A stretch of DNA of 64,000 nt from Pyrrhoderma lamaoense (taxonomy: Eukaryota; Basidiomycota; Agaricomycetes; Hymenochaetales; Hymenochaetaceae). The stretch is taken from assembly GCA_002794735.1 (NCBI GenBank), contig NBAZ01000005.1, positions 372,001 through 436,000 of the forward strand, in the 5' to 3' direction. The notes beneath the pieces were generated by a model. It was not told the DNA's origin and searched no databases. It saw only the letters and a program-made list of their open reading frames with translations. A program made the position numbers and the translations under genes. Below are positions 442-54,688 of this stretch, piece after piece. The stretch's first letter is position 1; the number at the start of each line of letters is the position of its first letter.

Positions 442-3356
442 ATGGACGCCGTGGCTCATGCCCCTTCAGTACGAGCTCCCATCTGATTCATTCTCTGCTC
501 ACTCTCCTCATTGATATCTTTTTCGCTTCTTCGCTTAGGACACCGGTGCCGCGTCTCAAGCATCTTCTAGCATGAGTAGGTTCCGCCCATATGCAAGCTC
601 AAAGCATAGAGTTACAAGAGGGAGATACATCACATCCAACGATAGACGCGGATACATGTGAGATACTTCCGTATCACTTATTTTTTGCTCCGACATGTGC
701 TCATTATCACACAAATATTTGATACCCCGGCGTAATTGTAGACCCGTTTATGAATATCCGCTCAATGGTCAATGGATCATGATGGACTCAGATGATGGTT
801 TTGTCCTTTGGACCGGTATTTGGAAAGGTAACTCTCTTGTCTAACGAACCTTAATCGGAGCTCTTGGCTGATCTTCTATTTTTTTCTCCCCTTCTCACTA
901 ACGCACTGTAAACAGCTCTTGGAAATGCCAAAGGTAGTTACTATTTAGTCGGAAATTTCACTTTAGGGTTTGATTCGAGATTCACCAGCTGATATAGTCA
1001 AGATGCTTGAGTCTCAGCCTGAGCTCGCTTCTCAACTACGTCGAGTTCGAGGCGGTTATCTCAAGATACAAGGAACATGGATGCCTTATGAAGTATGCTT
1101 GCCCTTCTGTGAAATGCCGCTTAACTTCGGCCTAACTTCGTTTCTTCTAGGTTGCCCTGCGTTTGGCGAGAAGGTAAGGCAGACCGACTCATCTGAAATT
1201 TTCGCTAATTCACATTGTAGGGTTGCATGGACTATTCGCGAGGATTTGATTCCTTTATTTGGGTTCGTATACCGAGCTAAAGTCTACTTTGATGTGACTT
1301 AATCTAATTTTCTATATACGAATAGGCCAACGTTCCCGTCCACCTGCCTCGCGCCAGATCAGCCTGGGTACGGCCAGATTCTGGGAAATCAACAGGGAAA
1401 ACGGCGCGGAAGACGTGCTGCAGTGCCTCTACCATTGCCGGCTCCCTTACCTCCGCCGCAACCTGCAGAAATTGAACCTCGTACGGGATCACCAAATCAA
1501 CAGAGACAGACTAGCATTGCTGGACCTTCATCCTTGGGTGTCGTTCGAACTGGAGAACGACTTGAAAATGTGTCCCCCGCACCTTTATCTGCTGGACCTT
1601 CAAGAACAAGTCACTTTGATTATGCAGAAAGGGAACAGATACTTGGAGAATATCCTCGAGATGCTTATCCGTTTCCTCACGGTTCAGAATCGAGACTACA
1701 ACACTACAAGCTTTCGGTGATGGCACCTCCCCCACTACCCTCACATTATGACTACCCGAGGTCCCCAGTATCTCCTTTCCAGCATGCTCATTCCCCTACT
1801 TCTGTCTTCCGAAATGAACACCAACCAGCTACGATTCAGAGGCAAAGTGGACGGTACTCTCCCTATCGACGGACGTCATCCACACGTTATCGTTCTGCAA
1901 GCATAACAAATCCGTTCCCTCGAGCGTCTCCGATAGATTTACCACCTCTTGCTATTCCTTCACGACCACGCGCAGCCTCAAGTATAGACCGCAGCTCCTT
2001 ATCGGCTCACCCGGTATTGGGTCCATCTTCATATTCTCGCTCACACCCAAGTCCCTCGGCAGCAGATCCGACCACGCCACCGACACACCAACGGTCTCCC
2101 GGAGATACATTTATTTTACCACCCTTGCAACCGCCATTGGCAACAACGGTCTCCGACGTATCGCGACGGCGCTCTGATAGTGGTCACTACTCTTCGGGAA
2201 GTGGAAGTGGTTACTCCCTTCCTCCGATATCCTCACTAGATGACCCCCCTTCTACCGGCCACCGAAGAAGTTCACAGTTGGATTCTACTGCAGTCTTGAA
2301 GCGACTGGCTCTTGATGACGAGACTTATGAACGGACGTCTAGCTTTAGCAGCGTTGCCCATCGTCACCGAGTCGGCGCCGAGGTAGCTATAGGGACGACG
2401 ATGGCAACGATGTGTTAGTCGATCCCCCTACTGAAGAACAGCTCTGGACTAGACGCCGATCGTTGTCGGAACCTCCGTCTCAACAGTACGTTAAATCCAT
2501 GCATTGCAAGTCCGATATTGAATCGACGCTCAAATGTCTCGGTATATACTTTTATTAACAACAACTAATTTATTACGACAGGTATACCTTTACGAGAAAG
2601 CAGTCGCCAGGGAACCATGACGGTAGCTACGAGGCTAAAATGTCCCCGATCAATGAAGGAGAGTACTACCGAGAACGTCAAGAGTCTCGTCCAGACGTTC
2701 GGAGGGTTGCGGGGCTGATAAACTCCAGTGGTGAGTCAATTGGACAACAAAGTGAAACTCGACGGTCATCATACTTAGGAGGTAGAATGGAAAGAGGGAG
2801 TTCAGCCCATTCACTATCCCCTCCGGGGCGACCCTTATCGCAATCGCAGAACAGAGCAGACGACCATGCCAAGTCCGTTAAGAGAGGCACATCGCGGACT
2901 AACATCTCGCTTCTTCGAGAAGGACTTGGTGCAGGTTCTTCGGGCTTGAGGGATCTGGATCAACCAAGTGGCGAAAGAGACGATTATACACCTCGTCAGC
3001 GTGTATCCTCAATATCTCCAGAGCCACCAGCGTATTGGCGGCCGCACTCGAGGGGGTCTACGCCTTCGGGCAACCAGGCTCAGTATGTGCCCTCACCACC
3101 TGGGGAACCGCAGCCGCAAGTAAGTGTAGCTCCCTCTTACCAGCTTCAGAGTAGGAATAGTAGCCCATTTGAACGAGGAAGGCTGGATCAACCGCGTACG
3201 GCCCTTACGGACTCTCCTCCTCAGTCACAAGACGATTTGGTCTCGATAGATAACCGTAATAGAGTTACCGATACACAATACTCGACTCGAACTCGTTTCC
3301 ATTCTCCGGATACTAGTAATCCCCCAAAGAGACGGAGGGTGGAGGACGCGTGGTGA
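442..3356 (+). CDS. APSES/KilA-N DNA-binding transcription regulator (XBP1-like), 9 exons
   Basis: Nuclear transcription regulator. Spliced exons 442-468, 539-657, 742-827, 916-933, 989-1092, 1151-1173, 1221-1262, 1326-2485 and 2582-3356 keep one phase apart from the break below and give about 775 residues. The KilA-N/APSES domain occupies roughly residues 35-150, with DDGFVLWTGIWKALGN, ADIVKMLESQPELA, RRVRGGYLKIQGTWMPYEV, RRVAWTIREDLIPLFG and CLAPDQPGYG all readable across introns. The remainder is long, Ser/Pro/Arg rich and disordered, and ends in a basic PPKRRRVEDAW stretch that could be a nuclear localisation signal. The frame breaks near 2357-2359 (CCC); one extra C restores a continuous frame into DDDGNDVLVDPPTEEQLW. 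The first exon codes for only nine residues, so a downstream Met (572) is an alternative start. The family is certain from the domain; the exact orthologue is inferred. Confidence 0.9.
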
Positions 3357-6441: not shown

Positions 6442-9400
6442 ATGAAATTTAGGTACATGCCACATGTAACTTTGTGAACTACATTAACATTTATATTTAG
6501 CAATTCCTTGAAATTTAACTCCGTTGCTGACTGGATTGATGAATATATTGAGTATGTGTGCTTTCATGTGCCATATTGCTAGTTAACGTAGTGCTTGCCG
6601 TTATACTAGCTATTCCTCACTAAAGAAGCAAATATATCAGCTAGAAAAGAAGCAACAAGCTATTTCAGTTACACGGGATCATGATGTGGAGTCTGACGAA
6701 CATTCAGCTCTTATAGGCCGCGATCCGTCATCTGCTATGACGGATGAGATTTTTAGACCTTTACTAGATCGGGAGCTCAAGAAAATATGCGGATTCTACG
6801 AAGCTCAAGAAGAAGCTCTTCTGAAAGACCTTGAAGAACTTGAAAGGTCTGTGCAAATGAAAGAGGAAGAGTTTTTACACGATGCAGAACAACACTACAT
6901 GAATTTTGATAATAATAATGACGACGATGATGATGACGATGACGATGACAGGGAGTCTCCTGTTCGTGAGCGCGCACCTAAAGCTAGCCGTTCTTTACAA
7001 AGACGCGGAAAGCCTGATAACTTTAGCAGGGGTGCTCGTACGTTCTCTAGGAGTTCATGTGTATTATACCCTTTTCTCTGACACCCTTTACTAGCCGTTG
7101 TTCAGACTTCTATATCTCATGACTCAGCCCAGTCCAGAATCTCGCGACGTCTCAGTGTTTCATCAAGTGAAGATGGCTATGACCTTGAAGCTAGCCTTGC
7201 ATCACTTGGCCAGATACCCGAGCATGATGCTCTACGGACAAGCGTTGGGGACCTTCGCGGTTCCAGTGTTTCTCCGACTCGGAGTCGCGCGAGAGCTGCG
7301 TTATCGAATATATTCACACTCGTCAAACCAGATGCTAGTGTAACATCATCACCACTTGCCAAAGATACAATTTGGAATACAAAGAGTAATTATGCATTTG
7401 ATGTTCGTGCCCTCTTCAAGAGGCGGATTACCACGTTATATAATACTGCCACATCGTTAAGAGCATACGTTGAACTAAATTACTCTGGCTTTCGTAAAAT
7501 TCTGAAGAAGTGAGGGTTTTCTTGCTTTAGACTACTGTTCTTTCTTACATTAATCGTAACAGATATGATAAGATAACGTATAATGAGGTTAGTAGTTTTA
7601 TCTTATTATACTTATCAAGTTACTAAATATATTTTTAGCTGAAAGACCATTACATGCATGATGTTGTTGAGGAGGCGTATCCATTCCAACAAGAAACGAA
7701 AGAGAAGCTCAAGAATACCATAAATCGCCTCATCGCACTCTATGCAAAATGTGTTACCCACAACGACTTTGCCGCGGCTTCCCGGCAGCTCAAAGTTCAC
7801 CAACGGGAGCAAATAGCTTGGGAGAGGGACACGGTATGGCGAACTATGATCAGCCAAGAACGCCGCGGAACGCGTGATGGTCAGGTGAAGGCCTTGGGCG
7901 GACGTGTTTCTCCTGAAGAAAGTTATGGTCTTGTAGTTCCCACTCCTCTCGGCAGATTCAAATTGTCAACGAAGAAGATTTTCCTCCTCGCGGCCATTAT
8001 AGTCTTTGTGATCTTGTTGAATACCGAACTTTATCCTACTACGGAAGCAAATAACTGTTTTGCTATCTTGATATTGAGTACTATCCTATGGGCTACAGAG
8101 GCAAGTCTTACTTGAGTTACATTGGAACTTATCAACTAGATAGCCTAACAAAATACTCAATAGGCTATTCCTTTATTCGTGACTTCGATACTCGTTCCCC
8201 TTCTACTTGTTGTTTTCCGTGTCTTTGTATCAGCGCACGATAAGGAAGTCCGGCTAGGGGCACCAGAAGCAACGAAGTAAGCTGCTGACTTATAGAAAGA
8301 CTTTCTGATGTTCTAACGCATCCTTCTTTTTCATTAAGATTCATCTTTTCGCAGATGTTTTCACCAACAATCATGCTGTTAATAGGCGGCTTTACAATCG
8401 CTTCTGCTCTGAGCAAGACAAATATCGATCGAGTAATCATTACTCGCTTGTTGAGTTTCGCAGGAACGAAGCCAAATACAGTCCTACTTGCATTTATGGG
8501 TGTATCCTGCTTCGCGAGCATGTGGATCAGGTATGCAGGACTATTCTTTCGGATGCTTAACACTCATTTACTTTCACAGTAATGTTGCAGCTCCAACACT
8601 CTGCTTTACCCTGATCAAGGTAATGTATGGCATATTTTTTAAGCTTCTAATTAATAACGTTTTCAAAGCCGATTTTACGAAACCTTCCCCCAAAACCAGT
8701 TTTGCACCATGTTTAATCGTAAGCGGATGGCTCCCGATTAATAATGAAGAGTACTTTATTCATAAACCCATAAAAAACTTGATTTTTTTAAATTTAGTTG
8801 GGTATCGCACTTGCAGCAAATATCGGAGGACAAAGTTCTCCTATTTCTTCACCGCAGAATCTTATTGCCCTAGATGAGATGGATGAGCCACTTGACTGGG
8901 CGCAGTGGTTCGCCGTAGCCTTACCTGTCTCGGCAATATCTATAGTCTTAATCTGGATCCTGTTAATTATGAGTTATAATCCCTCCCGCACTTTAGACGG
9001 AGAAACTCTTGTCATTAAGGAGATAAGGCCTACTAAAGAAAGTTTCACCGCTAAACAATACTGGGTCACCTTCGTTTGTATTATAACTATAGCTCTTTGG
9101 TGTATTGAAAAAGAAATTGAAGGTCTCGTCGGAGACATGGGAATAATTGCAATTATACCCATTGTTGCATTTTTCTCCACGGGTATATTAAGAAAGGTGA
9201 GTAACTGACGGGAAGGGAGACTTCTAAGCTTTTAATTAATGAAACGCTAGGATGATTTCGAGCAATTCTTGTGGACTATAGTGTTCCTAGCTATGGGTGG
9301 TATTGCTCTTGGGAAGGGTGTCACAAGTTCTGGACTACTAAACATCTTAGGGGACGGAATTAGAGATATTGTCGGCAGCCGTTCTCTTCCTGCTGTGGTC

Positions 9401-11068: not shown

Positions 11069-13169
11069 TCATGTCTTCTTTCCCACTATCCGATTTAGCA
11101 AAGTAGTGAGTACGACCGCACATACACCGACACCAACCATAAAAACGTAAGATGGAACACCGTTCTCGAGAGGGTCCCAAGCATCAGGAATATAGTTCCG
11201 CCACTCAGATTTATTGGAAACAGGGGTCAATTCATCGCAATTATTGTTGGTACTGTTTTCGGCAATCGAAGGAGGTAGCTTCTTCGAAGGGCCAGAAGCT
11301 TCATTTGTCTGAGTAGAAGTGGCTTCCACCAGTATCGTGCTTGGCTTCGTAGCTCCCATGCACTCCGCCAGCATAGATCTCGACTCTGTGACAGAGTTCC
11401 TTTTCACAATATCCTGGCAATATTGATCTCGTATAACCTGCTCCGCGTCTTTACGTTCTAGGACTTCTAATTTCTTCTCAACCACGTCTAACCGTTCCTT
11501 GAAAATCTCTAGTAAGGACAATGCTGTTTGCAGCTTTTCATTTTCTTCCGTTTCAAGCTTCTTTTTCGCACTGTCAACCCCTGTTTGTATGGTATCTTGC
11601 CCCAGTTCATTAATGTCGATTTGCGTACATTCATCCACTTTCTCGACAATCTGCAGTGGAGTTCCCAGAGTTAACTTCAAGCCCCCTGGAGAAGAAGAGG
11701 CGGACATGGGTGGTGTGGGTAGTGGGCGTGAAGGCAAAGGGCGAGAAAAGATATCCTTGATCCGTCTCCTTGACTCGCCAGTAGACTTGTTACTCCCCTT
11801 CCCACTTCCTGTTCTTGAGTTGCAAGAAAGAGGAGACGGGATATGGGACTCTCAAGTGCGGTATCATTCTCGGGGTTGATACGCTTCACGGTTTCAGCAA
11901 TGTTTAAGTCTTCCCATGCCTTTGCACCCCAACTATGAGACAGAGAGTCGGTACTTGAAGCAAGCAATTCTTCAACAGAAGGTTCCTCGTCGTTTCTGAC
12001 TATCTCATCCAATCCTAATATCTCTGGTAAAGCTTCCATGACCGGAATCGGAATCGGTGACGTAGTACATGGAGGTTCTGGAAGGATGCGTTTTTTAACT
12101 GTCGCGCGCGCCTTTCGGTCCTCAATTTCACTAGCTTCTGATCCACTGGCAAAAGCTGCTTCCTCATCGGCCCAGGCATTAGTAAGTAGTTCTCCTTCAC
12201 TTGTAGAACTCCCGTGATTGCTGAGACCGGAACTAGAAGTCCGCTCAAGACTCGCTACAAGGCCACGAACACGACCTTTGCAATTAGAATTCTTGCTCGG
12301 AGTTATATCCTGAGACCCAGAAACATCATCGACCGATGAAGAGGAAGAACTAAAAGCGTGTGTATAGGGAATCTTGTAGAATTATTGTCATCTTCTTCAA
12401 AACCCCAGATTCGTCCCTTCAAAACATTTTGACGCAGGTTACGCGATGCATTAAGTAGAGCCTCGCGCCAGAGATTATTAACTCCCATTCTTTGAAATCA
12501 TATTTAGTATCGAGATTTTTGTGAATATGTGTGAACTCAGAAAACTTACGTCTCAAGATCCTGTTCATTCAGTCGCAAGAATGCGCGTCCATTCAGTCTT
12601 GCTTCCTTCACGAATCCAGCAATATCCTTTGCGACGGGAAGGGGTAGAGGTAAGCTTTCTCCCGAGCGCACACGAAGAGCAGTGATAAGATAAGAAGACA
12701 ATTGTGATGTTGTCCAGACTCGAGGATTCGAAGGTAAATCCTCAACCTTAACGGGGGAAGATGGCGGAGGAGCGGACGAGATTGGAAGCGTCTCTGCTCT
12801 TGTTCTTAGATTTGGGAAGATTGTCCCATCTGATCTTGCATGACTATGCCCAATCCTGCTCTTGACCGGGGAGGTTTGAGCTGGAGGTGTAGGAAGAGGC
12901 CTAGGTGAAGAATATGCCAGATCGGATTTGCTATGGCGATGTTTACTGGACGAGGGACTTGAGGTATTCGGTATATATACATGCTTTGGAGAAGCAGAGA
13001 AACCAGTTGAGTTAGATCGGGTCAGTAATGCGGTAGAAGTTGTCTTGATAGCATATGGGTGTTGATTTGGAGTAGAAGGTAGTGGACCGCGTTCACTTCC
13101 ACGATGTCCACTTGGTACGAGCACCGGAAATATTTTCTTTTCGGGCGACGCTGGGACACTTGTCGTCAT
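11069..13169 (-). CDS. SAM-domain protein with coiled coil and C-terminal membrane anchor
   Basis: Two exons, 13169-12550 and 12489-11069, giving about 680 residues after two single-base repairs. The N-terminal third is Ser/Pro rich and disordered (PRPLPTPP motifs). A sterile alpha motif-like domain follows, beginning VWTTSQLSSYLITALR and continuing LNGRAFLRLNEQDLET, crossing the intron into NNLWREALLNASRNLR. Then comes an acidic Ser-rich linker, a Lys/Glu-rich coiled coil (LLEIFKERLDVVEKKLEVLE) and a final hydrophobic helix (FMVGVGVCAVVLTTLLNRIV) followed by GKKT, a plausible tail anchor. The frame breaks at an A run (12352-12355) and a GGG (11845-11847); one added base each time restores it. 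SAM domains mediate protein-protein or RNA binding; the partner is unknown. The start at 13169 is chosen over an upstream Met at 13313 because the intervening stretch looks like leader sequence. Confidence 0.75.
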
Positions 13170-13345: not shown

Positions 13346-14451
13346 ATGGCCTCTCCCGTGGCTGGCTCGTCATCCTTGAAGTCGACTCTTAATCCTTATC
13401 AGCCTTTCCCTATCAAGGCCACAAAGGTAATTAGCTCCAACAATTGTTAGTCACATAGGTAGTAATTACGAAACTTGTTCTCCAGAATGAGCGAATTCAG
13501 TTTTCTTCATTACATCCGTTTACTCCTACCTTCGTGGAAACGCATATAAGCAAGTCAAAAAACCTCGATGCGAAATCTCTTTATGAGAACAGAGTCAAAG
13601 GTCGCACAATCTTACTTGAAAACCCTGTACGAGAGAGTCGATTTAAGAGGAAGAGAGAAGAAAAGAAGAAGCAACATCAAAAGGTCGTTGAACGAAGGAG
13701 ACTGAAGTTGATCAGCAAAAAGGAAGCTAAGCTAAAAAGTTTGTGGACGTTGGAAGATAATCAGAAGAAGTATGTGACAATAGCAGTTCCTCAAACTGAT
13801 ATTTGAACGATGTATGTAGTTATGAACTCTTTGTCCCATTACACCACTTATGGTTGGGATACATGTCCGAATTACTCGGTTTGAGTCCGGTGCCATCAAC
13901 GATACCCGGTACACCGTCTCTACCAAACTCAGCTGCAATGCATACCAAACTGGTCAAGGCAGATTTCCATGGTTCGATAATCACTGGTAAGTAAGCTTCT
14001 TCTCTTATGATATTCACAATCTCAGGGCTAAATCTCTCTTTTCCAGTAAAAAAGGCTAAAAACCCTTCTCTTGTGGGTATTTATGGGATAGTCCTACTTG
14101 AATCTGAGAACGCTTTCAAGCTTATTACGCCCAAAAATCAAGTAAAATGTAATGTTGATCGATCACTTTGAATGCTACTGTAAACTAACTTGCAACAGTA
14201 ATACCCAAACAAGGCGCAATCTTTTCTTTTAAAATACCAATATATGATATCCGATCTTTGATACCTTCAACGCCGCACTCTGCCTCACAGGAGACTAGCG
14301 AAATGGATGCAGGTAGCAATTCTGCTCAAGCACTTCCGGATCTCAGCATTATTCCTTATATGGAGTTCGAATTATACGGAAATCAGTTTCGGTTCGCGCA
14401 GCAGAGCGTGCAGGCAAGAAATTTAAAGCTAAGGAGACGATAGAGCTTTAG
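13346..14451 (+). CDS. POP4: RNase P/MRP protein subunit Pop4 (Rpp29)
   Basis: Subunit of nuclear RNase P and RNase MRP, which process tRNA 5' ends and pre-rRNA. Exons 13346-13426, 13486-13769, 13820-13986, 14047-14148 and 14199-14451 give 295 residues. Family landmarks are SLYENRVKGRTILLENPVRE, a basic KRKREEKKK stretch, LFVPLHHLWLGYMSELLG, AMHTKLVKADFHGSIIT, the UPF0086/Rof fold core NPSLVGIYGIVLLESENAFK and VIPKQGAIFSF, and ELYGNQFRF near the end. A single base is missing close to 14393; with it the C-terminus becomes AGKKFKAKETIEL, typical of the family, and ends at 14451. Without it the raw frame stops at 14443. It starts 177 bases from the divergent SAM-domain gene, so the two probably share a promoter. 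Confidence 0.93.
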
Positions 14452-14653: not shown

Positions 14654-14655
14654 CC

Positions 14656-16210: not shown

Positions 16211-16851
16211 ATGTCTGATATCAAAACCGAAGGATTCAAAGTGAGTGATATACCATCTTTCGAATCAATAAGGGAAGAATACTTAAATTCTTGTTCCAAA
16301 AGTCGTCTGACGTTCTCGCCGAACTTGCTTCCGTATTTTCATCGTTCAGCGAGACGGAAAAGAAAGCTCAGATAAAGAAGGTACATTGTATATATTGCTA
16401 AGCTTGTAATAATGCAAATTCTGGGACTGAGGTGAACGCATTCTATCACAGGCGAATGGTATCTTTGAGCTGCAGATCAAGAACAGTGATGGGAAAGAGG
16501 GCGTGTGGACAATTGATTTAAAGAATACAGGGACTGTGTTCAAAGGGTCTGTACCGAAACCAAAGAAGGCCGATGTTATCATCATCCTTTCTGATGAGAC
16601 TTTCTGCAGCTTGCTGACAACAAAGTGAGCATTTGTTTTACTTCGTGTTTTATAAGCTTGGACTCAACGACTATATTCAAAGCTTGACGGTCAAAGGGCT
16701 TTCATGACGGGAAAGCTGAAGACAAAGGGTAATATGATGCTTGCAACGAAACTTGATAGTGTTCTCAAGGCAAGTACAGGCTTTAACTTACCCCTGATAC
16801 ATGAGTTCTTACATTGTTTGTCAGGCTGCTAAGCCTAAAGCTAAGCTCTAG
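16211..16851 (+). CDS. SCP2 sterol-carrier domain protein with peroxisomal targeting signal
   Basis: Small lipid-binding protein consisting of a single SCP2 domain, known to bind fatty acyl-CoA and sterols, usually in peroxisomes. Exons 16211-16240, 16303-16380, 16452-16624, 16683-16769 and 16825-16851 give 131 residues. Readable motifs are KKANGIFELQIKNSDGKEGV, WTIDLKNTGTVFKG, KADVIIILSDETF and AFMTGKLKTKGNMMLATKLD. The C-terminus is Ala-Lys-Leu, a classic PTS1 peroxisomal signal, encoded by the last exon. One base is missing in the AAA before the donor at 16625; phase requires it. The last intron (16770-16824) is GC-AG. Confidence 0.92.
16770..16824 (+). other. GC-AG intron in the SCP2 gene
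   Basis: The junction AAG|GCAAGT ... TTGTCAG|GCT joins DSVLK to AAKPKAKL and creates the PTS1 terminus. The donor context is the strong consensus typical of functional GC-AG introns. Confidence 0.85.
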
Positions 16852-21387: not shown

Positions 21388-24367
21388 ATGGTTACCGTTC
21401 GAATGATGTCTCGCAACACACGAAAATATATATCTAGCTCTCTTCACCCCCACTCCGTCCAAGACAGAATGTCTTTTCTCCTTACACTCTAACTTCGCGA
21501 CGAATGCATATTAGGGCACTTTCATATTCGACAATTCCGAAACTTGTTGCGCGTGCCTTCAGAGTCCCCATAGCCGGGGCGACAGTAGGAGCTGGGGCGT
21601 TGGGGTATGCTAACTATAAATTTGAGGGTGCGCTTATTTGTAAATACCGTCTATCTTCTCGCTAATTAATGCCCCATTTTAGAACTGAAGAAAGCTTCTA
21701 CTGGTTGGATAAATAGTGTTCATGAAACTGCGACAGATGTTTTCGACTTCGCATCCGACGGACTCAAAAATGTACAATCTAGGTTCTCTGAAGTTGAACT
21801 ACCAAATGTAGAGGCACCACAGTTCTTGAAAGACTTCTTCGCCTCCCGGGAAAGATCTAGAGGGTCAGATCCAAAAGGGAAATCGGACGGTGGTGGGGAA
21901 TCTAATGGGAACCGCCCAGACGGTGAAGATGCTGTTGTGGCAGCTCTTGCTGCTGCTACGTTAGGCGCTCCTGAGTACTCCGAAGAACGAAATTCAAATC
22001 CAGATACGCAACAATTCAACGGACTGATGCTTCTGACGAAGAAGTTAATACAAATAAAAGCAATGCTGCGTGAAATCAATAAAGAGGATTCTGTAAAGTT
22101 ACCTGGTATCGTCGTTATTGGATCCCAGAGCTCTGGTAAAAGCTCTGTATTAGAAGCCATTGTCGGACATGAGTTCTTACCGAAGTACGCCTCCGATGGT
22201 TTATCTGTACTTTAAATTTCTCACCTAATCTTTACAGGGGTAACAACATGGTCACCCGCCGGCCCATCGAATTAACACTAGTACATACGCCTGCTGACCC
22301 TACTGAAAAGGGGCCTCAGGAGTATGCTGAGTTCCCAGACCTAGGGCTCGGTAAAATTGCTGATTTCACACAAGTACAACGTACACTCACAGATCTCAAC
22401 CTCGCTGTTCCTGCTAGTGAATGTGTCTCAAATGACCCAATTAATCTCCATATCTATAGTCCAAATGTCCCTGATTTGACATTAACCGATCTTCCTGGCT
22501 ATATCCAAATCTCATCGATGGATCAACCTGAAACATTGAAGGAGCAGATCACAGACCTATGTGAGAAGTATATCCGTGAAAACAACATAATTCTTGCTGT
22601 CTGTGCAGCTGACGTTGATCTTGCAAATTCACCTGCTCTACGTGCAAGTCGAAAAGTTGATCCGTTAGGCCTACGTACGATTGGTGTCATAACTAAGATG
22701 GACCTTGTCCCTCCAGAAACGGGCGCACAGATTCTATCTGGAAACAGATATCCTCTGCATCTTGGCTACGTTGGTGTCATCTCAAAATCTCCGGAAAGAA
22801 GCAGAAAGAGTCAACAGGGGAATTAGTTAGGAGGAGAGAAGACGAATATTTTGGCCAAAACTCAGAGTACTTCGGAAAACCTTCATCGCTGATGGTAGGT
22901 ACAAGCACACTTCAGCGTCGATTACGAGAAGTTTTAGAGAGCTCTATGGCGTCGTCTCTTCACAGTGTCACGAATCACGTACAATTAGAACTTGAAGAAA
23001 CACGATATCAGTTTAAGGTTAAATATAATGACCGACGGATAACCGCTGAGGCGTATGTTGCTGAAGTGGTTGACACTTTAAAAAACCGTTTCCGCGAGTA
23101 TATATCACAGTTTTCTCGGCCTCAGCTGCGCTCGAAACTGAAGGATCACCTCAACGACAAATTGATGTCAATTATGGAACAGCTTTACTGGTCTGACCCT
23201 CGCACTAAGGAACTCTGCGACCTCGCCGCTGACCCAAAGGTAAAGCCTGAGGACGTTGAATTATATTGGAAATACAAGCTCGAGGCGGCTGGGTCATTGC
23301 TGACGAAATCTGGGATCGGACGGGATGCAACGAATGTAGTAGCTAATGGTCTACAAAGCCTTGTAGAGGCGATTTCTAAAGGTGAACCGTTGTCCCACCA
23401 TCCAGGCGCAGCAGAAAGACTAGTTGGGTTTGGACAAAAGATTTTGCGAGATAGGATTAATATTACGACGGATCAAGTCGAAAATTGTATTAAGCCTTAC
23501 AAATACGATATTGAGGTTGACGAGCGTGAATGGGAGCTTGGTCGTTTGAAATCACTGGAAACAGTCGAAAAAGAGCTGCAATTATGTGAGGAGCAACTGA
23601 GGAGCATTCGGCAACGTATTGGTGGTAGCAGAAGATTAAATAATCTTATGTCCTATTTCCAATCCGTTGAGGAGAAAGAAAGAGAAAGACGGAGACAAAG
23701 GTTTCTATCTGCAGATCCAAGCAATGAACCGGAAAATGATGAAGTTCACTATCGTTACAGTGCTGCTCAGATGTTTGATGGTACGCACAAACTAAAGCCT
23801 TGTTATAGTTCATCTCTAATATTTCATCCTTTTAGCTAAGCGTGCGATCAGTTTTTCCGACCGTATGAGGATCCTGAAGCTTCGGCTTGCAACTTTGAAA
23901 TCTAAGCGCTGTAAAGGTGGACCAAGTAATGACGTTTTGTGCCCCGAGGCCTTTTTAGATGCTGTTGCAGACAAGCTCGCGTATACTGCCTCCATGTTCA
24001 TTAATATTGAGTTGATTGGCCATTTTATTGATGAGGTGATTATCTTTATGTGCCAACCTATTTACGTCGTATTGACTGAGCTTGTGACCCAGTTCCCTCG
24101 AGAAATAGACTCAAGATTAATCTTCACCCTTGACCACAAAGAATTGGAAGCATTTGCGAAAGAGAATCCGACGGTTCGAGAGCATCTTGAATTACAAGAA
24201 AGGAAGGACAAACTTGAAGAGGTGTGTTCTATGGAGTCATTCATATTAAGCCTCTAAACACATCTATCACTCAGGTCATGAAGCAGCTTAACAGTCTAGC
24301 GAACTTGCGCAAGGATGCGCAACCAACACCACAGCGTTCAAAAGGCTTCTTCAGGAGTATTGTCTGA
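21388..24367 (+). CDS. MGM1: Mitochondrial dynamin-like GTPase Mgm1/OPA1
   Basis: Large GTPase of the mitochondrial inner membrane and intermembrane space that drives inner-membrane fusion and cristae shaping. Exons 21388-21627, 21683-22184, 22238-23780, 23836-24035, 24093-24221 and 24275-24367 give 902 residues after two repairs, the size of yeast Mgm1. The N-terminus is Arg/Ser rich ([11 protein letters not shown]) and then RALSYSTIP; a hydrophobic segment ([15 protein letters not shown]) fits the membrane anchor. GTPase motifs: G1 [10 protein letters not shown]2 within [10 protein letters not shown]3 DLPG, G4 TKMD. The middle and GED regions are long helices ending [10 protein letters not shown]. 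Two bases are missing, in the C run 21447-21451 and the GGGG 22817-22820. If the first repair is wrong, the start is Met 21504, which would lose most of the targeting sequence. Confidence 0.94.
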
Positions 24368-26311: not shown

Positions 26312-28620
26312 TTAACTCAAGCTCTGAAAATCCTTTCTTCCTTCCCATTCTTTTCCATTATTCGCTTCTGTCTCCCAAACTTTAAGAGCATCGTCATCCC
26401 AGACTCTATCTGAGAAATCTCCTTCTTTCAGAAGAAATACATCGTCTTTAATTTGAGTCGGTAAGTATTGATTATGAACCGGATGTCTACGCGAAGAAAT
26501 TGTTATAAAATCTCATACTAATGGCATAGATGATAGACAAAGATAGTACAGGACTTACTTATAATCGGGATTGTATCGGTATCCCTCAGCATACCCAAGA
26601 CTTTCCATGAGTTTTGTTGGTGCATTACGTAGTTGAAGTGGTACGGGTAGAGTCATATCTTGCTCCGCAGCAGCTTCCGCACGATTATAAGCCCTATATG
26701 ATCGTGTTGATTTGGGGGCCTCAGAAAGATACGACACAAGATGAGCAAGATGAATACGACATTCAGGCATTCCAATTATCTGGCAGGCCTGATAAGTAGA
26801 TACGGCCTATATGCGGATAGAGCAACCATAATACTTAGGATTCGAAGGTTAGCAGGTGATCAAGAAGAATGCCACTTACTAAAGGTAGTGCTTTTGGATC
26901 AGCTAGACCGATATCTTCGCTAGCGCATACAAGCATCCGCCGAGCTATATAAAGAGGATCCTCTCCTGCTTTTAGCATCCGTGCAAGCCAGTACAAAGCT
27001 GCACTCCCTGCACTCCCTCTTACACTCTTGTGCAATGCACTAATTAGATCATAATGGGCATCGCCTGTCCGATCATACCCATTAATAACACTGGTACGTA
27101 ATGATTCGATAAGGGCAGAAGTTGGAGTCTCTTGCGGGGCACTCAACACAAGAGAAAGCAAGGAAAGAGCCGTTCGTGCATCGCCAGTAGAGAGGGATAT
27201 GAGAGACTGAAAGACTTTTTGCGAAATTTGGGGATGAGAAGGAAATGGGAGAGAATCAGACTCTGGAGAAGAGGTCATTACAAGAGTTTGTGAAGCCGTT
27301 TGAGAAGGCTGAGTTGAGAGCTCGGTGGGTCTGTAGTCACGTCCGACGGAGGATTGGCAGGATAATCTATTAGATCTGTACTTTGAACATCTCTATCATC
27401 ATTTTTACTAGAAGAGGAATCAACACGAGCGATAGCTCGTATGATGATTTCCTTTATGTCGTCATCCGTGAGTCGCTCAAGTACAAAGACACTAATGGGA
27501 TCCTTAATATTTAGTTGATGTTTTTTTTTCTAGCTATAGGAGCTTGAAGCTTACCGGCATCGACTGAGTAGAGCCCCGTTAACTCTGAACGAAGGATTTT
27601 CGGTGGTTGCTCCGATTAACTAGGAAACGGCTAGTTTTGTATAACATCCCATTTATCAGAAAGTACATCTTACTTGAATATGTCCCTGTTCTACATAAGG
27701 GAGAAATATATCCTAGAGTCACTTAGGTCTGTCATAAGGCCAAACATGAACGTGACGTGATTACTCACTTGTTGGGCCTTGTTGAAACGATGTATCTCAT
27801 CCAGGAAAAGAATGGTTTTTCTAAGCGAATAAGAGTTACAAAAATTATCAATAGAGTGTGATTTTCTGTAGTACCTTCCTGTCATTGCTAAGAGACCCTT
27901 GCTTCTTCAAACACTTTTCTTACGTCGTTTATCCCAGACCCTGTAGCAGAGAGTTCCTTGAACACAGAACCAGATTTATTCGCTAACAATCGAGCAAGAG
28001 TTGTTTTCCCACAACCTGGAGGACCCCAAAAGACAACACTTCCCATGTTCTTCCCTGACTCTAGAAGATGTCTTAAGAGTGAGTTAGGTCCTATAAGATG
28101 TGGTTGTCCGACAAAATCTTCCAGAGATTGAGGACGTAATCGTTCCGCTAAGGGCTGTGCATTCTCTAGATTTGAGGTAGTAGCCTTTGCACGTTTGTGC
28201 GAGACCCCTTGAGTAAAAGAGGATGAGGTCTGTATCTGTGTATGCGAGGTGAATGGCTCAGAGAAGAGAGCATCCGATTTTCTCTTTGAGTTAGATCCTC
28301 GAGAGGGTGTCTGAAAGGAAGTATCAAAGGGATTTGAAGCTTGCACTTGCGATGACCCCGGTTTACTGAAAATTGGTGCTAGCGGTACATCGGCCTGCTT
28401 AGATTTGGCAGAAGGCTTTGATGTGTTGGATTTATTTTCTTTGATAGGCGTGAATTTTATCGGAGTACGAGAAGTTACCACTTCCGAACAGCCATTATCC
28501 AAGTGTTCATTGATATCTCTTTCAGGAACCAACTGGGAACAAATAGGGCTGAAAATAATTGTATATAAGCTAGTTACTGAGTCTTAGAAGTCTAACTTAC
28601 CAAGTGACTTCAGAACTCAT
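26312..28620 (-). CDS. MGS1: AAA+ ATPase Mgs1/WRNIP1/RarA
   Basis: Replication-fork maintenance ATPase of the RarA/Mgs1/WRNIP1 family, nuclear, related to clamp loaders. Eight exons (28620-28601, 28548-27875, 27820-27769, then about 27,730-27,670, 27,620-27,557, 27491-26880, 26806-26559, 26486-26312) give 628 residues. The N-terminus has a Rad18-type ubiquitin-binding zinc finger, CPICSQLVPERDINEHLDNGC, split by the first intron. Then LAERLRPQSLEDFVGQ, Walker A GPPGCGKTT, Walker B FLDEIHRFNKAQQ, sensor GATTENPSF, the arginine finger region LLSRCRVF, and the tetramerisation part ending GMPECRIHLAHLV, EAPKSTRSY and EGYRYNPDY. Two bases are missing, in CCC 27896-27898 and near 27324; one base each restores phase. 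It starts 560 bases from the divergent VPS71 gene. Confidence 0.93.
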
Positions 28621-29959: not shown

Positions 29960-31359
29960 TTACCCTGTGGTCCTTTTCTTGAAATGCTCTTTAACTTCTT
30001 CGGATCCATCCCCTGCAAGATCAGGAAGCCAAAATGCCTGAAAGCTTGGTTCAATAATCGAAATCAGTCAAACTCTTATACCGGACTTACTAGTTCTTGT
30101 CCAGCTGTCGCCAGCATTGCGAATCGCGGATTGAATCTAACACAACGTGAAGGCCCAGGATGACCATCAATAGTAGATAATGGCTGAATCACTTTTGGTG
30201 GTTTACTCAGATCAATCGGTTCCTCTGACCGAGATGGTAGATTCTGCACGTCCCAAATGCAAATCTTTCCATCCAAACTGCCCCTAAAACAAATTTACTA
30301 TCAGGTGTCCAAGTGATTTCTTCCCCACTAATTCCTTTTGTTGGATTCAGTCCTAAACTAGCATCAATTCTTGTACGCTCTAATCCTACATGTCCTTCTA
30401 GTTTTGCAAGAAGATGTCCCTCAAAGGCATCTAGAATATAATGTGCAGCCCCAGACGTCCCAACAAGTAAATACTTTCCGTTTGATGAGAAAGCCAGTGA
30501 AGTCATGTAAATTGGTCTTGGAGGGAAAGATATGAGTTTGAGTAATGGATCGTCAAGGGTCATTGTAAGAAATGGCTCTTTGTCAAAGTTGTTCATATCG
30601 TAGAGTAAGATTCGGGAGAAGTTGTTTATTGCAACTGCAAAAACAAGTCCCGAGCTATCATATGCTACTAGCGGCGAGGATGGGAGGTGAAGAATGCCTC
30701 GACAATTCGGAGCTCTCAGATCCCACAATCGGACTGTACGGTCGACGGAGCCTGACATAAATCCATCATCCGTTGGTGATACCTCCAAGGTGATGACTCG
30801 TTCCTTATGGCCTTTAAAGTACTGAAGATATTTATTGTCATGTAAAGAGTGATATCGAATTGTGTCATCTTCTTTCGTTGATGCGTGCAGGAGTGAACTA
30901 CTTTTGTGTGTAAACCGTGGAAGATCGACACCATACTTCTTCGAGTATAAAGTCTTCATATGCCTACATTTAACAAGATATAGTGTATAAGAGTCTGGAC
31001 CCGTATAAAGGGATCTAAGGTAGGTATACTTACCTCCCACTTTTACAGTTATATATACGGAACGTTTCATCTTCAGCCGCGGTAACAATAACATCTCCAC
31101 GATCATCGAAGGACAGTCCAGTAATGTGCCGTGGATTTTGAGGTCTCTGTTGAGGAGTCCCAGAAGACAATGGAGGGAGAGGTTCAACAGAGTTCTTGAA
31201 TATCTTTGCGGGTTTTAGTTTACTCTAGATTCAAAGTAAGTCTGTTGTCAAAACATTCAATTAACAAAAAGCACGGACCATGAGTGTTTCGTTGAGTTCT
31301 GTTGAAGGTGCTGGAGGTTTGGAGCCATTGACAGCAGTACTAGGCCCTGCACTTGCCAT
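29960..31359 (-). CDS. SWD2: WD40 protein Swd2/WDR82
   Basis: WD-repeat subunit shared by the COMPASS/Set1 histone H3K4 methyltransferase and, in yeast, the cleavage and polyadenylation factor. Exons 31359-31279, 31224-31034, 30963-30091 and 30037-29960 give about 407 residues. Repeats are readable as HITGLSFDDRGDVIVTAAED, YFKGHKERVITLEVSPTDDG, SGSVDRTVRLWDLR, MTSLAFSSNGKYLLVGTSGA and SLDGKICIWDV, finishing with GHPGPSRCVRFNPRFAMLAT. This order is diagnostic for Swd2. One base is missing in CCCC 30281-30284 (the frame needs GGSLDGK). The protein is longer than WDR82 at both ends. It shares a 160-base divergent promoter with RPB5. Confidence 0.92.
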
Positions 31360-31519: not shown

Positions 31520-32424
31520 ATGTCAGAAATTGGAGGACCTGACGAAGCTGCTCGGCTATGGCGTGTCAACAGAACTATACACGAACTTGTGAAAGATAGG
31601 GTAAATAACTAACAATAAATGTGACTCTGGCTATTGTTGAACCCTTGTGTAGGGATACCAAGTATCGACGAGGAAATACATATGGATCTTGCTACTTTTA
31701 AATCTCAATACGCAAACAGTGCCGGATCCGTAGAGTAAGTTCTGCTAATGTGCGAAGAACAATATTGCTTATAGTAATATTAGTCGTAATCAGCTAAATT
31801 TCTTCACGAACCATCAGCACAATCCATCAGAACATGTATTTATCTTCTTCACGGACGAGAAAAATGTCGGTGTAAAGACAATGAGAAAGTGCGTTAGATT
31901 TATACCATAAACTCAACTCAGATATTCATTGGCATCTACTAGACTTATCGGAATTTTAGAAGAAAAGTCAATCGGAGCTGGTATTGTCATTTTCCCCGGA
32001 ACAATGACCCCTTCCGCACGAAAGGTGATCATAATGATAACAAAAGCGTTTTGTTCCTGTTCTTATCCTTTTCTTCAAGGTCATAAACCAGGTTAAAACT
32101 TATCGGATTGAAGAATTCTCCGAATCAGATTTACTTGTTAATATTACCCGCCATATCCTCGTCCCTCACCACGAATTGCTCACACCAGAACAGAAAAAGG
32201 AATTATTAGAGAAGTAGTACGTTACGAATATCCTTCTTGCGCGGTTTCATTATTTTCTGACTAGAAAACTTTAATATAGCCGATTGAAGGACACACAGCT
32301 CCCTCGCATTCAGATAGCGGATCCAGTCGCTCGATATTATGGACTTAAAAGAGGTCAAGTAGTTAAGATTACCCGTCCCTCTGAGACCGCTGGACGTTAC
32401 GTCAGTTATCGCATATGTTTCTGA
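31520..32424 (+). CDS. RPB5: RNA polymerase I/II/III common subunit Rpb5 (RPABC1)
   Basis: Common subunit of the three nuclear RNA polymerases, part of the lower jaw. Exons 31520-31600, 31653-31734, 31784-31888, 31943-32024, 32080-32216 and 32280-32424 give 210 residues, the normal size. N-terminal jaw domain: [20 protein letters not shown], then [20 protein letters not shown] and [17 protein letters not shown]-terminal assembly domain: [40 protein letters not shown] and [20 protein letters not shown]. One base is missing near 31666; the frame resumes as [11 protein letters not shown]. All six junctions then hold phase. Confidence 0.95.
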
Positions 32425-32769: not shown

Positions 32770-34714
32770 CTATTGTGTCTGACACTCTGGAGTGCCATCC
32801 GCTTCATCATCTTCATCTATCCATGCATCTTCGTCGTCTTCATCTGCACCGAACTGGAAAGCAGAAAAAGCAGACTGGTTCAAAAAATCGGGACCAGGAG
32901 CGAAATAGCGCGCACGCACATTGGCGGAGTCGGCTTCTTCATAGGCCGGCTCGTCTACCACCGGTGGGCGAGGCTCAAGGTCTGGCTTCTTTGGAGGCAG
33001 CAACTGTTCCAGTGCCTGTATTCGAGAAGTCAGCAAGTCGACGAATGAGCAATAAAGTTACATTCAGGAAGTGAACAGATTGATCTCTGTCACCTTCAAA
33101 TGTGAATTCAGAAAGAGGGTATAAAACGTACCTTTTTATCGACTTCAGCAGACCATGTTGAATCTGGGAATTCAACATCAAACACGAGATAAAGATCACC
33201 CTTTGTATCTTGATTCTTGTACTGTGGCATGCCTTCTCCTCGGAGAATAATGGTGTCACCGGGGCGAGTCACCTTATTCTCGCGAGAAACTTCGATACCC
33301 CGACCATCAAGATGGGTAAGGAGTATACGCTTGAACCCAAGGAGAGCCTCAGAAATCGTGATCTGCACCTTTGTAAGAAGGTCGTTACCGGAACGCTCAA
33401 ACGAAGCGTGTGGCTTCAATTTAAGCACGAATATAACATCACCGGCGGGAGAATCGGGCTATTGAGCACATGCAATTAGGAGTCTATCAAAAGAAGGGAA
33501 GCAAGGCTCGTTATTTTCTTACATATTGGTCTCCCTCCCCGGTCAAAACGATGCGTTGCCGGTCAGACATACCCTTCTCCACGAAGATCTCCTGACGCTT
33601 CTTTTCTTTTATAGTCTTTTTCCCTTTACACTTTTTACAACTACAAAGACAAGTCAGAAGTGGTAGTATTAAGTACAGGTGTGGAACATTTTACCAATCT
33701 TTCTCCCGGAGTTTCTCACCCACGCCTTCACAATCCTCACACATGACCCGAGTTTGGCCAAAAGTTGAATGGCCCATCTAGTTAAAATGTCTAATTAAGT
33801 ACATACAGTTCTAGCGCGTTCATAATGATAACTTACGGGTGTGGTTGCAATTGTCCATCCCCTTCCTCGCATTTAATGCAAGTTTTTGGCTTTGCACTAC
33901 CTTTCGCACCGGATCTTTCAATGTCAGAGACTCAAAATGAGCGCAAGCGAAGGGTGGTCCATGCAACGCTGATCACATACCCTTTGCAGGAACCACAGAC
34001 GATCTGTCTCTCCATATTCATCTTAACTTGTTTTCCATTATATAGATCCTCTAGTGACACTTCGTAAGGAATCACAGAATCTTCTCCTCTCCCGGGCCGC
34101 CGAGGTCCCATACCAGGTCCACCACCAAATGAGAAGGAGAAACCTCCGTTCGTGAAGAGCTCTGAAAGTATATCAGCAGCATCCATTCCGTTACGTCCAC
34201 CATGATCGCCAGTGATGCCTTCTAGGCCTGATTCATCATATACCTCTCTTGTGTGAGGGTCAGAAAGAATCTCATATCTGTCATATTATTGAAATGAGAT
34301 AAACGCAAATCGAGACATCTTATCAAAAATACAAACGCAGTTCCGATCTCTTGAAAACGTTTACTGGCCTCCGGATCGTTGATATTCTGAATTAAGAATA
34401 AGCTATGTTAAGGCGTCGTACATGGTAGGCGCAAACCTTATCCTATATTCCATGCATGAAGCCCATCAATCAATTAAAAGTGACGTGCACGACGTACCGG
34501 ATGATGTTCCTTAGCCTACAAGAGTATGAGTAAAGCTTCGTCAAGGAAAAAACTTTCATTCCTGACCTTTTTATAGTACGCCCTCTTGATTTCAGCTTGA
34601 AAAGTATTTACAGGTAAGTAGCCACTCTGTGAGTTTTGTGAACTTGAAGCAACCTACCGTCAGAGGCATCTAGCGCCACACCAAGCAGATCGTAAAGCTC
34701 GGTCTCTACAGGCA
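32770..34714 (-). CDS. Class A J-protein (Hsp40) with CaaX box, Ydj1/Xdj1-like
   Basis: Hsp70 co-chaperone. Exons 34714-34658, 34595-34567, 34515-34498, 34442-34437, 34386-34337, 34277-33981, 33914-33837, 33777-33695, 33640-33523, 33458-33132 and 33015-32770 give 436 residues. J domain: ETELYDLLGVALDASD, AKEHHPDKNINDPEASKRFQ (HPD present, split over a 6-base microexon). A Gly/Phe-rich segment (NGGFSFSFGGGPG) follows, then four zinc-binding Cys pairs (CGSCKG, CIKCEEGDG, CEDCEGVG, CKKCKGK) and the substrate-binding domains (ITISEALLGFKRILLTHLDG, TRPGDTIILRGEGMP). The protein ends Cys-Gln-Thr-Gln, a CaaX farnesylation box as in Ydj1. The second Cys pair has one extra residue before the last Gly. 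One base is missing near 33837. No ATG lies in frame before 34714: the first visible codon needs an A from an upstream exon (A|TG), so the 5' exon is not resolved. Confidence 0.88.
34437..34442 (-). other. 6-base microexon encoding Asp-Lys of the J-domain HPD motif
   Basis: On the minus strand the exon GAACATCATCCG ends at 34498 before GTACGT; the intron runs to AATATAG; then GATAAG stands alone before GTTTGC; the next intron ends TTCAG before AATATCAACGAT. Only this arrangement gives EHHP-DK-NINDPEA, and all flanking dinucleotides are GT/AG. Confidence 0.85.
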
Positions 34715-51296: not shown

Positions 51297-51433
51297 ATCA
51301 TAACAAATTGTACAATTTGTTGTTCGTTTCGTTGCTGTGCCCCTCCACCCCTCCACCCCACCTTCCCCAAGCATCTCCGAATCCTTGTTGTCATCGTTCC
51401 GTTGTTCTTTTCTTTTACTGGTGTACGTACTGT

Positions 51434-51465
51434 CCTGAGTCCTGAGTCCTGAGTCCTGAGTCCTG
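51434..51465. repeat. (CCTGAGT)n tandem repeat
   Basis: Four exact copies of the 7-base unit CCTGAGT followed by a diverged fifth (CCTGTGT). Confidence 0.9.
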
Positions 51466-52967
51466 TGTCTTACGTCCTACGTTTTACGTTCTATCTTTTT
51501 ATACTTTGTACTTTATACTTTATAGATTTATACTCGTATGACAGCTTGTTTTATTAGTTTTTATCAACTTTGTTGATTTTGATAGGTGTTTAGGGAGTCG
51601 AATGGTGGTAACTGTATTTTACTACTACGATAATTCGTAGCTTCGTTGTTCTTGTGTCTTGTCGATCGTGTGAAGAAAGAAAAAGGGAAGTTCTCAAAAG
51701 GGTCTCAAAGGGAAGGGAAGGAAGGATCAGTGTCTGTGCATACGCGCGTGGGGGGGACCGTCCTCCGTTGTCCGAGTATATAATACTAATAATAATTATA
51801 ATTATTATGATGGTGATGATACCATCTCAGATGTGTATACGTATCACTTGTGACTGTATGTACGAGTTCCAAGGTTCTGAGTTTCAAGAAAAAGTTTGAG
51901 TGTGGGAAGAAACGCATGTGCGCATACAGTTTACAGTACTGAGATTGTTTACGACCCCCCTCCCCTCTATACATTTATAGATATTTAAAATAATACACGG
52001 GTGATGGGCTTCGTACGTGTGCGGCGCGCGTGTATGTGCTTTGTTTCTTTTTTCGGTAAGAAAGGAAGGAAGGAGGTTGAGTAAGAAGTGAAGGAAGAGA
52101 AGGAGGGGAAGGAAGGAGGGATCAATTGAATGAATAAGTGAATGGATGAACTCGCGGTTTCAGTTCACGGATTTCTTGGTGGGGTGGTGGTTTCGTGGCT
52201 CGGATTAGGGCCTCAAACGAAGCAACGGAAGAAGAAGACGAAGAAGAAGGGGGTAAGCGTGGTTGAGTGGGGAGGGGGAAGGAGGGATGTCCTGATTTGG
52301 AGAGATGAAACGAGCCGTGTCCGGGTATGAAGGGAAGAAGAGAGGGGGGCTAAAGGAAGTAGGAGAGTCCTTGGAGACGGGGAGGGCGGGGACTATGATG
52401 GACCGGGGGAGTGAGACCAGAGGGCTGGGGACTCCGGGACCAGAAGGGATAGACGGTCTAGGGAAGCAGAAGAAGGTAAGAGACCGGAGTGACGGGAAGG
52501 ACGGGTAAATGTTGGCATGAAATAATCGAGAGGGAGCAAGTGATAAAATGGATGTTGTGATGTTGTGATGTGGGCCGTCCATGTTGACGCCGGAGAGAGG
52601 ACTCGGGAGATGCCAGACAAAGTGTCAAAGGCTAAAAGACGAGAAGGAGGAGGAGAGGGCTTGTGGGTTGGAATCGGTGAGAGTGATGAATGATGCTTGC
52701 AATCAGGTAATCTCGATCTGAGCCAGACGTTGATCACCTGTCCCGATATGGCAAGCAGTAAGCTCCTCGGGATCCGCTCTCGGGTGATGACCGACTAAGA
52801 AGAGAGCGGCTTCTTCGAGCACGGACTAGCACAAGCTGCTGCAGGCCACAGTCAAGTTGCAGAGGATCGCACTCGGCGATGACTTCCGCTCTGTCTGCAC
52901 TGGCTCTGGCCCTCGCCCTCGCCCTCGCTCTGCCACAACGACGATGGGTCGAAGGACGGTCCGCAAT

Positions 52968-52975
52968 TATAAATA
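52968..52975 (+). promoter_or_regulatory. TATA-like box TATAAATA
   Basis: TATAAATA, 275 bases before the bZIP start codon. A second TATATATA at 53071-53078 is 172 bases before it. Either could position transcription of the bZIP gene. Confidence 0.45.
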
Positions 52976-53070
52976 ATAACCGCCCAGTGCCCTCTCTCCC
53001 CTCACTCCCCCCAGTGCCAGTGCCAGTCCCTGCTCACTTTCTCACCCTGCTCCCGTCCTCCTTCTCCCGT

Positions 53071-53078
53071 TATATATA
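53071..53078 (+). promoter_or_regulatory. TATA-like box TATATATA
   Basis: TATATATA in an otherwise C/T-rich context, 172 bases upstream of the bZIP ATG. It lies inside a 97-codon open frame (52879-53172), which argues that frame is not translated if this box is used. Confidence 0.4.
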
Positions 53079-53242
53079 CCACTGCCTCTACCACTGCTAT
53101 CCGTCCTGCTACCCCCTCTCCCCCAAAAGTAAAGCCAAGCATCCCGTCCTCGTGCTCGTTCTAAATACATAAGTCTCTCCTCCCCACCCTCCCGGCTATT
53201 TCTATCATTGCTATTCAATCCTATTCATCCACCGACTTCATC

Positions 53243-54688
53243 ATGTCCTCCAAGCGAGGAAGGAAGCGCAACGACAACCTGCCCCCGAACAGAGCACGCG
53301 ACGTTCAGCGCGCTTTCCGTGCCCGTAGAGCTGCTCACCTTCTCGTAAGTTGTCCCCCCCTCCTCCCCCCACATACACACACACTCTATCTTTTCCCTTT
53401 CATCGGCTATATACTCCTGCTGCTTAGCCTCGACGTCCCGGGTACTATACCAGATTCCCGCCCATCTGTCCCTTCTCAATCATGTTAATAAGTAACTTGA
53501 GCTAATGCATACTACCTCATACCCTCTCCTCTACCCTCTATACATACAGGCACTTGAAAGTCGCGTCGAGGAGCTCGAAGACGAAAACCTTCGTCTTCGA
53601 CAAGCTCTCAACCTCCCTCCCCCAACTAGGATAGAACTCGGTCGAGGTCCAACAGGCAAGGACAAACCTAAACGCTCTTCCAGTTCCGGCGGTCTTCACC
53701 ACTCCTCTACCTCTTCCTCCTCCACCGTCATGCCTCCACTAATGGGTATGGGCTCTGGAGCTGGAGGGCTTCATGACGGCTTCCTGTCGTCACATCTGGA
53801 AGGTTCAGGCTCCCCGTCCCCTCCTCAGACGAACGTCTCTGCCTCGCCTCCCAACTCCGTCATTGGCGGAGGTGGTCCGGGAGGTGACGGCCTGGATATG
53901 GATATGGAAATTGAGGATATGAGAACTGGTGGCAGTGGTGGTGGCCATGGTGGTGCAGGGGGAAGTGGTACAGGAGGTGCCGCCAGTGGGGGTTCCTCTT
54001 CCTCTATCTGGGGAGACTTCTCTCATCACCATCCTCATCCACAACCCACTCACCCTGCTCACCTGTCGAGTGCCTATGGCTCTTCTGCTGACTCGTATAG
54101 GTTTGATGGGGCTTCAAGTGCTGCAGCCTCAGTGGGTGGCAGTGGAAATTCGAGGCAGAGGACTGTGACGGGTATGACGACGGGGAGTGCCGTTGGGGGT
54201 GTTAGCGCTGCTACTCTCTACTCCTCCACCACGAATCCGTATGCTTCTTCTTCTGCTGCTAATGCTACCACTAGTTCTTCGGCGTCTTCGAGGGATCCTT
54301 CAGGCCTGTCTTCTTCAACCTCTTCACTACCTTCTGCTTCCTCGTCTTCTACCTATTATCAGACCGATCTGAGAGGGTCTATGTTATCTACTCATCATCA
54401 TCCTCCACCCCCACCACACCAACAAGCACATCATCCTTCGCACCATACCTCACACCACCCTTCACATCAGCAACAGCAACAACAACAACAACATTCACCG
54501 CATATGCAAGCCCGCAGATTGAAACTTCGAACTCTAACTCATCTTCGAACACCAATCCCGGTCATAGTCACGGGCAACATGGTGGGCATGGTGGTCACAA
54601 TGGACATGGTGGACATGGAGGACATGCGACGAGCAGTAGCGGTCCTCGTGGTGGTCCTTATTTGGTGTCTGGATTGTATTCGTATTAA
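53243..54688 (+). CDS. bZIP transcription factor
   Basis: Nuclear DNA-binding regulator. Exons 53243-53344 and 53550-54688 give 413 residues after one repair. The N-terminus is SSKRGRKRNDNLPPNRARDV, then QRAFRARRAAHL (AP-1/Yap-like basic region), immediately followed across the intron by the leucine zipper ALESRVEELEDENLRLRQAL. Relative to Yap-type NRAAQRAFR the invariant Asn is two residues further from QRAFR. The rest is long, disordered, Ser/Gly/His rich with His-Pro and poly-Gln runs. The frame breaks near 54500; adding one base gives a Gly/His-rich end GQHGGHGGHNGHGGHGGH and a stop at 54688 in place of a hydrophobic tail. Base and codon use is more GC rich than in other genes of the window. 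The large flanking gaps suggest an extensively regulated gene, an inference. Confidence 0.88.

What the first reader, a model, noticed from the sequence alone, without database searches (positions are those of the whole stretch)
2357..54500. Fourteen single-base gaps in eleven conserved genes, all missing bases
Tracing exon phases shows frame breaks at about 2358, 8693, 11846, 12353, 14393, 16623, 21449, 22818, 27324, 27897, 30282, 31666, 33837 and 54500. Every one is repaired by adding one base, usually extending a run of two to five identical bases; none needs a base removed. After repair total lengths are multiples of three and match family sizes (Mgm1 902, Pho91 896, Rpb5 210). One-sided errors in essential genes indicate consensus under-calling of homopolymers, not pseudogenes. 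Automated gene models here will be truncated.
Basis: partly seen in the sequence, partly recalled or inferred. Interest (0 to 1): 0.75.

Follow-up and report, generated by a model that had tools for sequence, protein, structure and literature searches.

The report
Missing-base sequencing errors break genes
Several ordinary fungal genes in this stretch look broken most likely because the genome sequence has lost single bases, an assembly error seen on other contigs too, and not because of any special biology.

Summary
The frame breaks are real in this sequence, and the assembly-error reading is well supported. The window lies in a 30.65 Mb, 72-contig assembly of a fungus close to Hymenochaetaceae. 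Twelve of 14 breaks are supported: 11 by homologues whose adjoining residues fall in two frames, one (27324) by codon statistics only. Two (2358, 54500) could not be tested; an intron remains possible. Some positions move by up to 30 bases. All 12 go the same way: one base short. Eight protein families searched across the assembly give 20 frame changes without room for an intron, on eight other contigs; 20 of 20 are one base short. Junctions favour runs of three or more identical bases (17 of 26; background 32%), but 9 of 26 lie in runs of one or two, and long runs are not scarce in the assembly. So: deletion-biased consensus error, partly homopolymer under-calling. Introns, pseudogenes, classical -1 slippage (heptamer at 1 of 12) and Euplotes-like decoding (old-frame stop at 0 of 12) fit badly. 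Reads were not available. An ordinary artefact, useful as an annotation warning.

The parts
2337..2392 (+). Break claimed at 2358, gene at about 1003-3356 (probably a transcription factor, by eye); not confirmed
   Evidence: Codon scores favour a frame switch; a gene finder bridges it with an intron, donor GTCTAG; no Pfam match for pieces 967-1299 and 1303-2415
8686..8697 (+). Frame break in Pho91-like phosphate transporter
   Evidence: Yeast Pho90 8r33 adjoins across it; reading the old frame unspliced and unshifted scores 22 bits less with an insertion (216.9 against 239.3)
11833..11842 (-). Frame break in SAM-domain/transmembrane protein
   Evidence: P0241 residues 220 and 221 adjoin in frames -2 and -1
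12360..12375 (-). Frame break in the same protein
   Evidence: P0241 residues 1-44 in frame -3, 42-220 in frame -2
14389..14400 (+). Frame break in RNase P/MRP subunit p29 (POP4)
   Evidence: Human p29 C-terminus 6ahr aligned without gap, E 0.0008; yeast Pop4 6agb, E 0.016
16598..16609 (+). Frame break in SCP2-domain protein
   Evidence: 4jgx and others; new frame fits a phase-0 intron just after it
21444..21455 (+). Frame break in Mgm1 N-terminus
   Evidence: P0123/P0124 match the new frame from 21450; their first residues resemble the old frame
22784..22814 (+). Frame break in Mgm1 after the GTPase domain
   Evidence: P0121, P0123, P0124 pass from frame +3 to +2 here
27320..27332 (-). Frame break in MGS1/RarA-like AAA protein
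   Evidence: Codon statistics only; called as a missing base by the gene finder at both settings
27888..27900 (-). Frame break in the same AAA protein
   Evidence: RarA 3pvs, loop of variable length (8g28 is shorter); splice phase of the next exon fits the new frame
30279..30294 (-). Frame break in Swd2 (COMPASS WD40 subunit)
   Evidence: 6 of 6 relatives aligned pass from frame -3 to -2 here
31661..31672 (+). Frame break in Rpb5
   Evidence: S. pombe 3h0g and yeast 1dzf aligned without gap across it
33860..33872 (-). Frame break in DnaJ-type chaperone, zinc-finger region
   Evidence: DNAJA2 7zhs aligned without gap across it; splice phase fits the new frame
54275..54500 (+). Break claimed at 54500, low-complexity region of a bZIP-like gene (named by eye); not confirmed
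   Evidence: Codon scores do not place a switch at 54500; finder uses an intron, donor GTCTAT, or at the lenient setting a missing base at 54351; no Pfam match

Best explanation
The breaks are consensus errors of a probably long-read assembly in which single bases were dropped, more often beside short runs of one base but also elsewhere. The living fungus very likely has whole Mgm1, Pho91, Rpb5, Swd2 and the rest. Shown: frame breaks inside conserved coding sequence, one direction only, recurring across the assembly, moderately linked to homopolymers. Inferred: that the true sequence differs, and the sequencing technology.
For: 12 of 12 supported breaks in the window are one base short. 20 of 20 clear frame changes in eight families elsewhere are one base short, none one over. 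Runs of 3 or more at 17 of 26 junctions against 32% background, p 0.0005; runs of 4 or more at 7 of 26 against 7.4%, p 0.002. Published long-read drafts show false deletions prevailing at runs of two to eight bases with a few at single bases (PMC12007338, passages seen).
Against: 9 of 26 junctions lie in runs of one or two. Long homopolymers are not depleted against an order-3 model in 264 kb. The gene finder also placed a few extra-base shifts: strict setting, window 1 missing and 0 extra, 20 other loci 3 and 2; lenient setting 6 and 3, 11 and 4. Of the 7 unclear family pairs, 2 lean towards an extra base. No reads or second assembly.
Confidence: 0.95

Rival explanations
1. True gene decay: real single-base deletions make these pseudogenes.
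For: The frames are truly broken in the sequence as given.
Against: Decay should give extra bases as well as missing ones; 0 of 20 clear cases elsewhere and 0 of 12 here are extra. Residues stay well conserved on both sides, for example 83% and 88% to P0001 in Swd2. The genes include core functions such as Rpb5, HSP70 and CCT (their importance is recalled).
Confidence: 0.01
2. Unrecognised introns explain the shifts.
For: A gene finder can bridge 8 of 14 positions with introns; for 2358 and 54500 nothing here excludes it.
Against: Those introns use mostly poor donors (such as GTTTGG, GTTCGC, GTCTAG) and, where relatives exist, remove residues that the relatives keep (Swd2, p29, SAM protein). 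Relatives adjoin across the junctions with no room for an intron; typical introns here are 47-95 bases (5th-95th percentile).
Confidence: 0.02
3. Recoding: ribosomes shift by -1 at these places, or transcripts gain a base.
For: Genome-wide and one-directional, as an unusual decoding system would be.
Against: Classical slippery heptamer at 1 of 12 junctions; no old-frame stop at any of 12, the next one 2-54 codons on; no shared motif seen in the contexts printed. Euplotes shifts +1 at stop codons (PMC10235951, abstract start in listing).
Confidence: 0.005

Closest known systems
Gene-fragmenting deletion errors in long-read assemblies (PMC12007338, passages)
   Same: False deletions prevail, mostly at short homopolymers, some at single bases; conserved genes look frameshifted
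   Different: That paper deals with small (bacterial) genomes and had reads and references; here a fungal assembly without reads, and outside A/T runs the C and G runs are prominent
Euplotes nontriplet decoding (PMC10235951, abstract start only)
   Same: Many genes change frame across a genome
   Different: Euplotes shifts +1 at stop codons; here the sense is opposite and 0 of 12 junctions sit on a stop
Programmed -1 ribosomal frameshifting (general knowledge)
   Same: Direction of shift that would be needed
   Different: The classical heptamer is found at 1 of 12 junctions, and the genes are constitutive ones

Membership tests
Long-read consensus deletion error | One-sided direction (missing, not extra bases) | tested here: met
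   12 of 12 in the window, 20 of 20 clear cases elsewhere; 7 unclear pairs split 5 to 2
Long-read consensus deletion error | Spread over the assembly, in conserved genes | tested here: met
   8 other contigs, 6 of 8 families searched
Long-read consensus deletion error | Association with homopolymers | tested here: met
   17 of 26 in runs of 3 or more, 32% expected; moderate, 9 of 26 in runs of 1-2
Long-read consensus deletion error | Long homopolymers shortened in general | tested here: not met
   Runs of 7-11 A/T and of 9 or more G/C exceed an order-3 model in 264 kb; the model is a weak yardstick
Long-read consensus deletion error | Reads disagree with the consensus | not testable with these tools
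   No reads available
Pseudogene | Mixed lesions, both missing and extra bases, relaxed sequence | tested here: not met
   Single direction; high identity either side
Intron | Gap of intron length between adjoining residues, with good splice sites | tested here: not met
   Adjoining or overlapping residues at 11 junctions; not settled for 2358, 27324 and 54500
Programmed -1 ribosomal frameshift | X XXY YYZ heptamer at the junction | tested here: not met
   1 of 12
Euplotes-type decoding | Old-frame stop codon at the junction | tested here: not met
   0 of 12

The most novel reading that the evidence does not exclude
The genome is correct as given and this fungus decodes core genes across single-base deficits throughout the genome, a -1 nontriplet decoding or insertional RNA editing. 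Without reads the evidence does not strictly exclude it.
Probability: 0.005. Interest if true: 0.95.

Novelty: not a real feature. Interest (0 to 1): 0.1.

Why it matters
Gene models, gene-loss counts and pseudogene claims from this assembly cannot be trusted gene by gene. Matched domains outside the window show about 0.26 missing bases per kb as a lower bound (20 in about 76.7 kb); the window shows about 0.6 per kb if all 14 count over the 7,283 codons predicted. A simple finder hid most breaks under false introns, so the damage may go unflagged. Polishing with accurate reads should cure it.

Tried and rejected
Codon-model gene finder with frameshift states: at the strict setting it reported 1 of the 14 breaks, since weak introns absorb others, and it also placed some extra-base shifts (counts in the Against line); used as proof only for 27324. 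Homopolymer spectrum: no truncation, so it does not by itself show under-calling. Pfam scans of pieces: good for naming, mostly too short to bridge junctions. Pho91 without splicing: the old frame stays open, but fits yeast Pho90 less well. Species name: one paper search and a term search in PMC10410303 gave nothing that fits. Tandem repeats: not at the junctions. Junctions for the homopolymer test were placed by hand from alignments and may be off by a few bases; that test covers the 12 supported window sites and 14 of the 20 outside ones (one myosin pair with a 20-base gap, four glucan synthase and one kinesin pair were left out). In one search one HSP70 pair counted was a match nested in another; the un-nested pair gives the same direction (40 bases of overlap for 13 profile positions, by hand). 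Pairs more than 600 bases apart were dropped before counting, and one nested glucan synthase match was dropped.

Full report
What the window is. It is bases 372001-436000 of contig 5 of a 30,650,214-base, 72-contig assembly; the contigs sampled reach 3.69 Mb, and the window holds no N. Swd2 matches Sanghuangporus baumii, Coniferiporia weirii and Phellinidium pouzarii proteins at 82-84%; Mgm1 matches Fomitiporia, Coniferiporia, Phellopilus and Sanghuangporus proteins at 69-72%. It is a fungus close to Hymenochaetaceae; the species was not identified. Contig sizes suggest long reads (inference).

Checking the breaks. I aligned relatives to the window, or compared joined pieces with solved structures, and asked whether residues that adjoin in the relative fall in two frames with no room for an intron. 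Swd2: 6 of 6 relatives aligned end in frame -3 at 30279-30285 and go on in frame -2 from 30282-30294. SAM-domain protein: frame -3 to -2 at 12366-12375, and -2 to -1 at 11839. Mgm1: frame +3 to +2 between 22784 and 22814, and a break at 21450, where P0123 and P0124 match the new frame while their first residues resemble the old one. Pho91, Rpb5, DnaJ, RNase P p29, SCP2-domain and MGS1-like. For Pho91 the old frame is open if nothing is spliced, but that reading scores 216.9 bits against 239.3 and needs an insertion. For SCP2, DnaJ and MGS1-like the splice phase of the next exon, read by eye, fits the new frame. The 27894 case is weaker, as the loop varies in length among relatives. This makes 11 of 14. 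The break at 27324 rests on codon statistics alone. For 2358 and 54500 no relative was obtained; codon scores favour a switch at 2358 but do not place one at 54500, and introns with poor donors can bridge both.

Direction. In all 12 supported cases the new frame begins one base early. If missing and extra bases were equally likely, all-one-way would have p 0.0005.

Genome-wide test. Eight families were searched in the whole assembly: HSP70, CCT/Cpn60, SNF2, AMP-binding, actin, myosin, glucan synthase, kinesin. Neighbouring matches within 600 bases were compared for spacing in the profile and in the genome. Of 107 pairs, 79 look like introns, 21 have no room for one, and 7 are unclear. Of the 21, one keeps its frame and 20 change it; all 20 are one base short. 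They lie on contigs 1, 2, 3, 6, 7, 8, 16 and 19. Of the 7 unclear pairs, 5 lean short and 2 over. AMP-binding and actin gave no clear case. One glucan synthase gene shows three breaks in a row. Other copies run unbroken over most of the profile, for example a CCT match over 46-486 of 490 and an SNF2 match over 25-289 of 290, without stops. One of the 20, a myosin pair with a 20-base gap, is looser than the rest.

Homopolymers. At 26 junctions the longest run within nine bases was four or more in 7 (7.4% expected, p 0.002), three or more in 17 (32% expected, p 0.0005), and one or two in 9. Over 264 kb the assembly is not short of long runs. So the error favours short runs but is not confined to them, and general homopolymer shortening is not shown.

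Rivals. The classical slippery heptamer occurs at 1 of 12 junctions. No junction sits on an old-frame stop; the next is 2-54 codons on. Euplotes shifts +1 at stops (PMC10235951, abstract start in the listing). Pseudogenes should show extra bases too. Published long-read drafts show the same picture: false deletions prevail, at runs of two to eight bases, with a few at single bases (PMC12007338, passages).

Consequences. Of the 14 positions, one simple gene finder bridged 8 with weak introns (near 2358, 11846, 12353, 14393, 22818, 27897, 30282, 54500), reported 1 (27324), avoided 1 by a later start (21449), missed 2 genes (SCP2-domain, Rpb5) and modelled 2 otherwise (Pho91, DnaJ). At 0.26 per kb, if it held throughout, several thousand bases would be missing from the assembly (inference).

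Verdict. Real in the sequence, very probably not in the organism; low interest beyond annotation.

Noticed in passing
41744-53242 and 54689-64000: Two stretches of about 10 kb in which the gene finder predicts no gene, on either side of the bZIP-like gene, rich in simple repeats, with a 211-base unit in two copies at 57700-58132.
   Followed up: partly
10968-13169: SAM-domain/transmembrane protein with 56 relatives found, fungal wherever named, none with a precomputed Pfam domain; function unknown.
   Followed up: partly
14820-15369, 35376-37595, 39852-41743: Genes without a listed break: Med22, an RsmB/F-type methyltransferase and a branch-point binding protein. They were not checked end to end against relatives.
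   Followed up: partly
53165-53485: A bZIP-like basic stretch seen by eye (recalled motif); Pfam gives no match.
   Followed up: no
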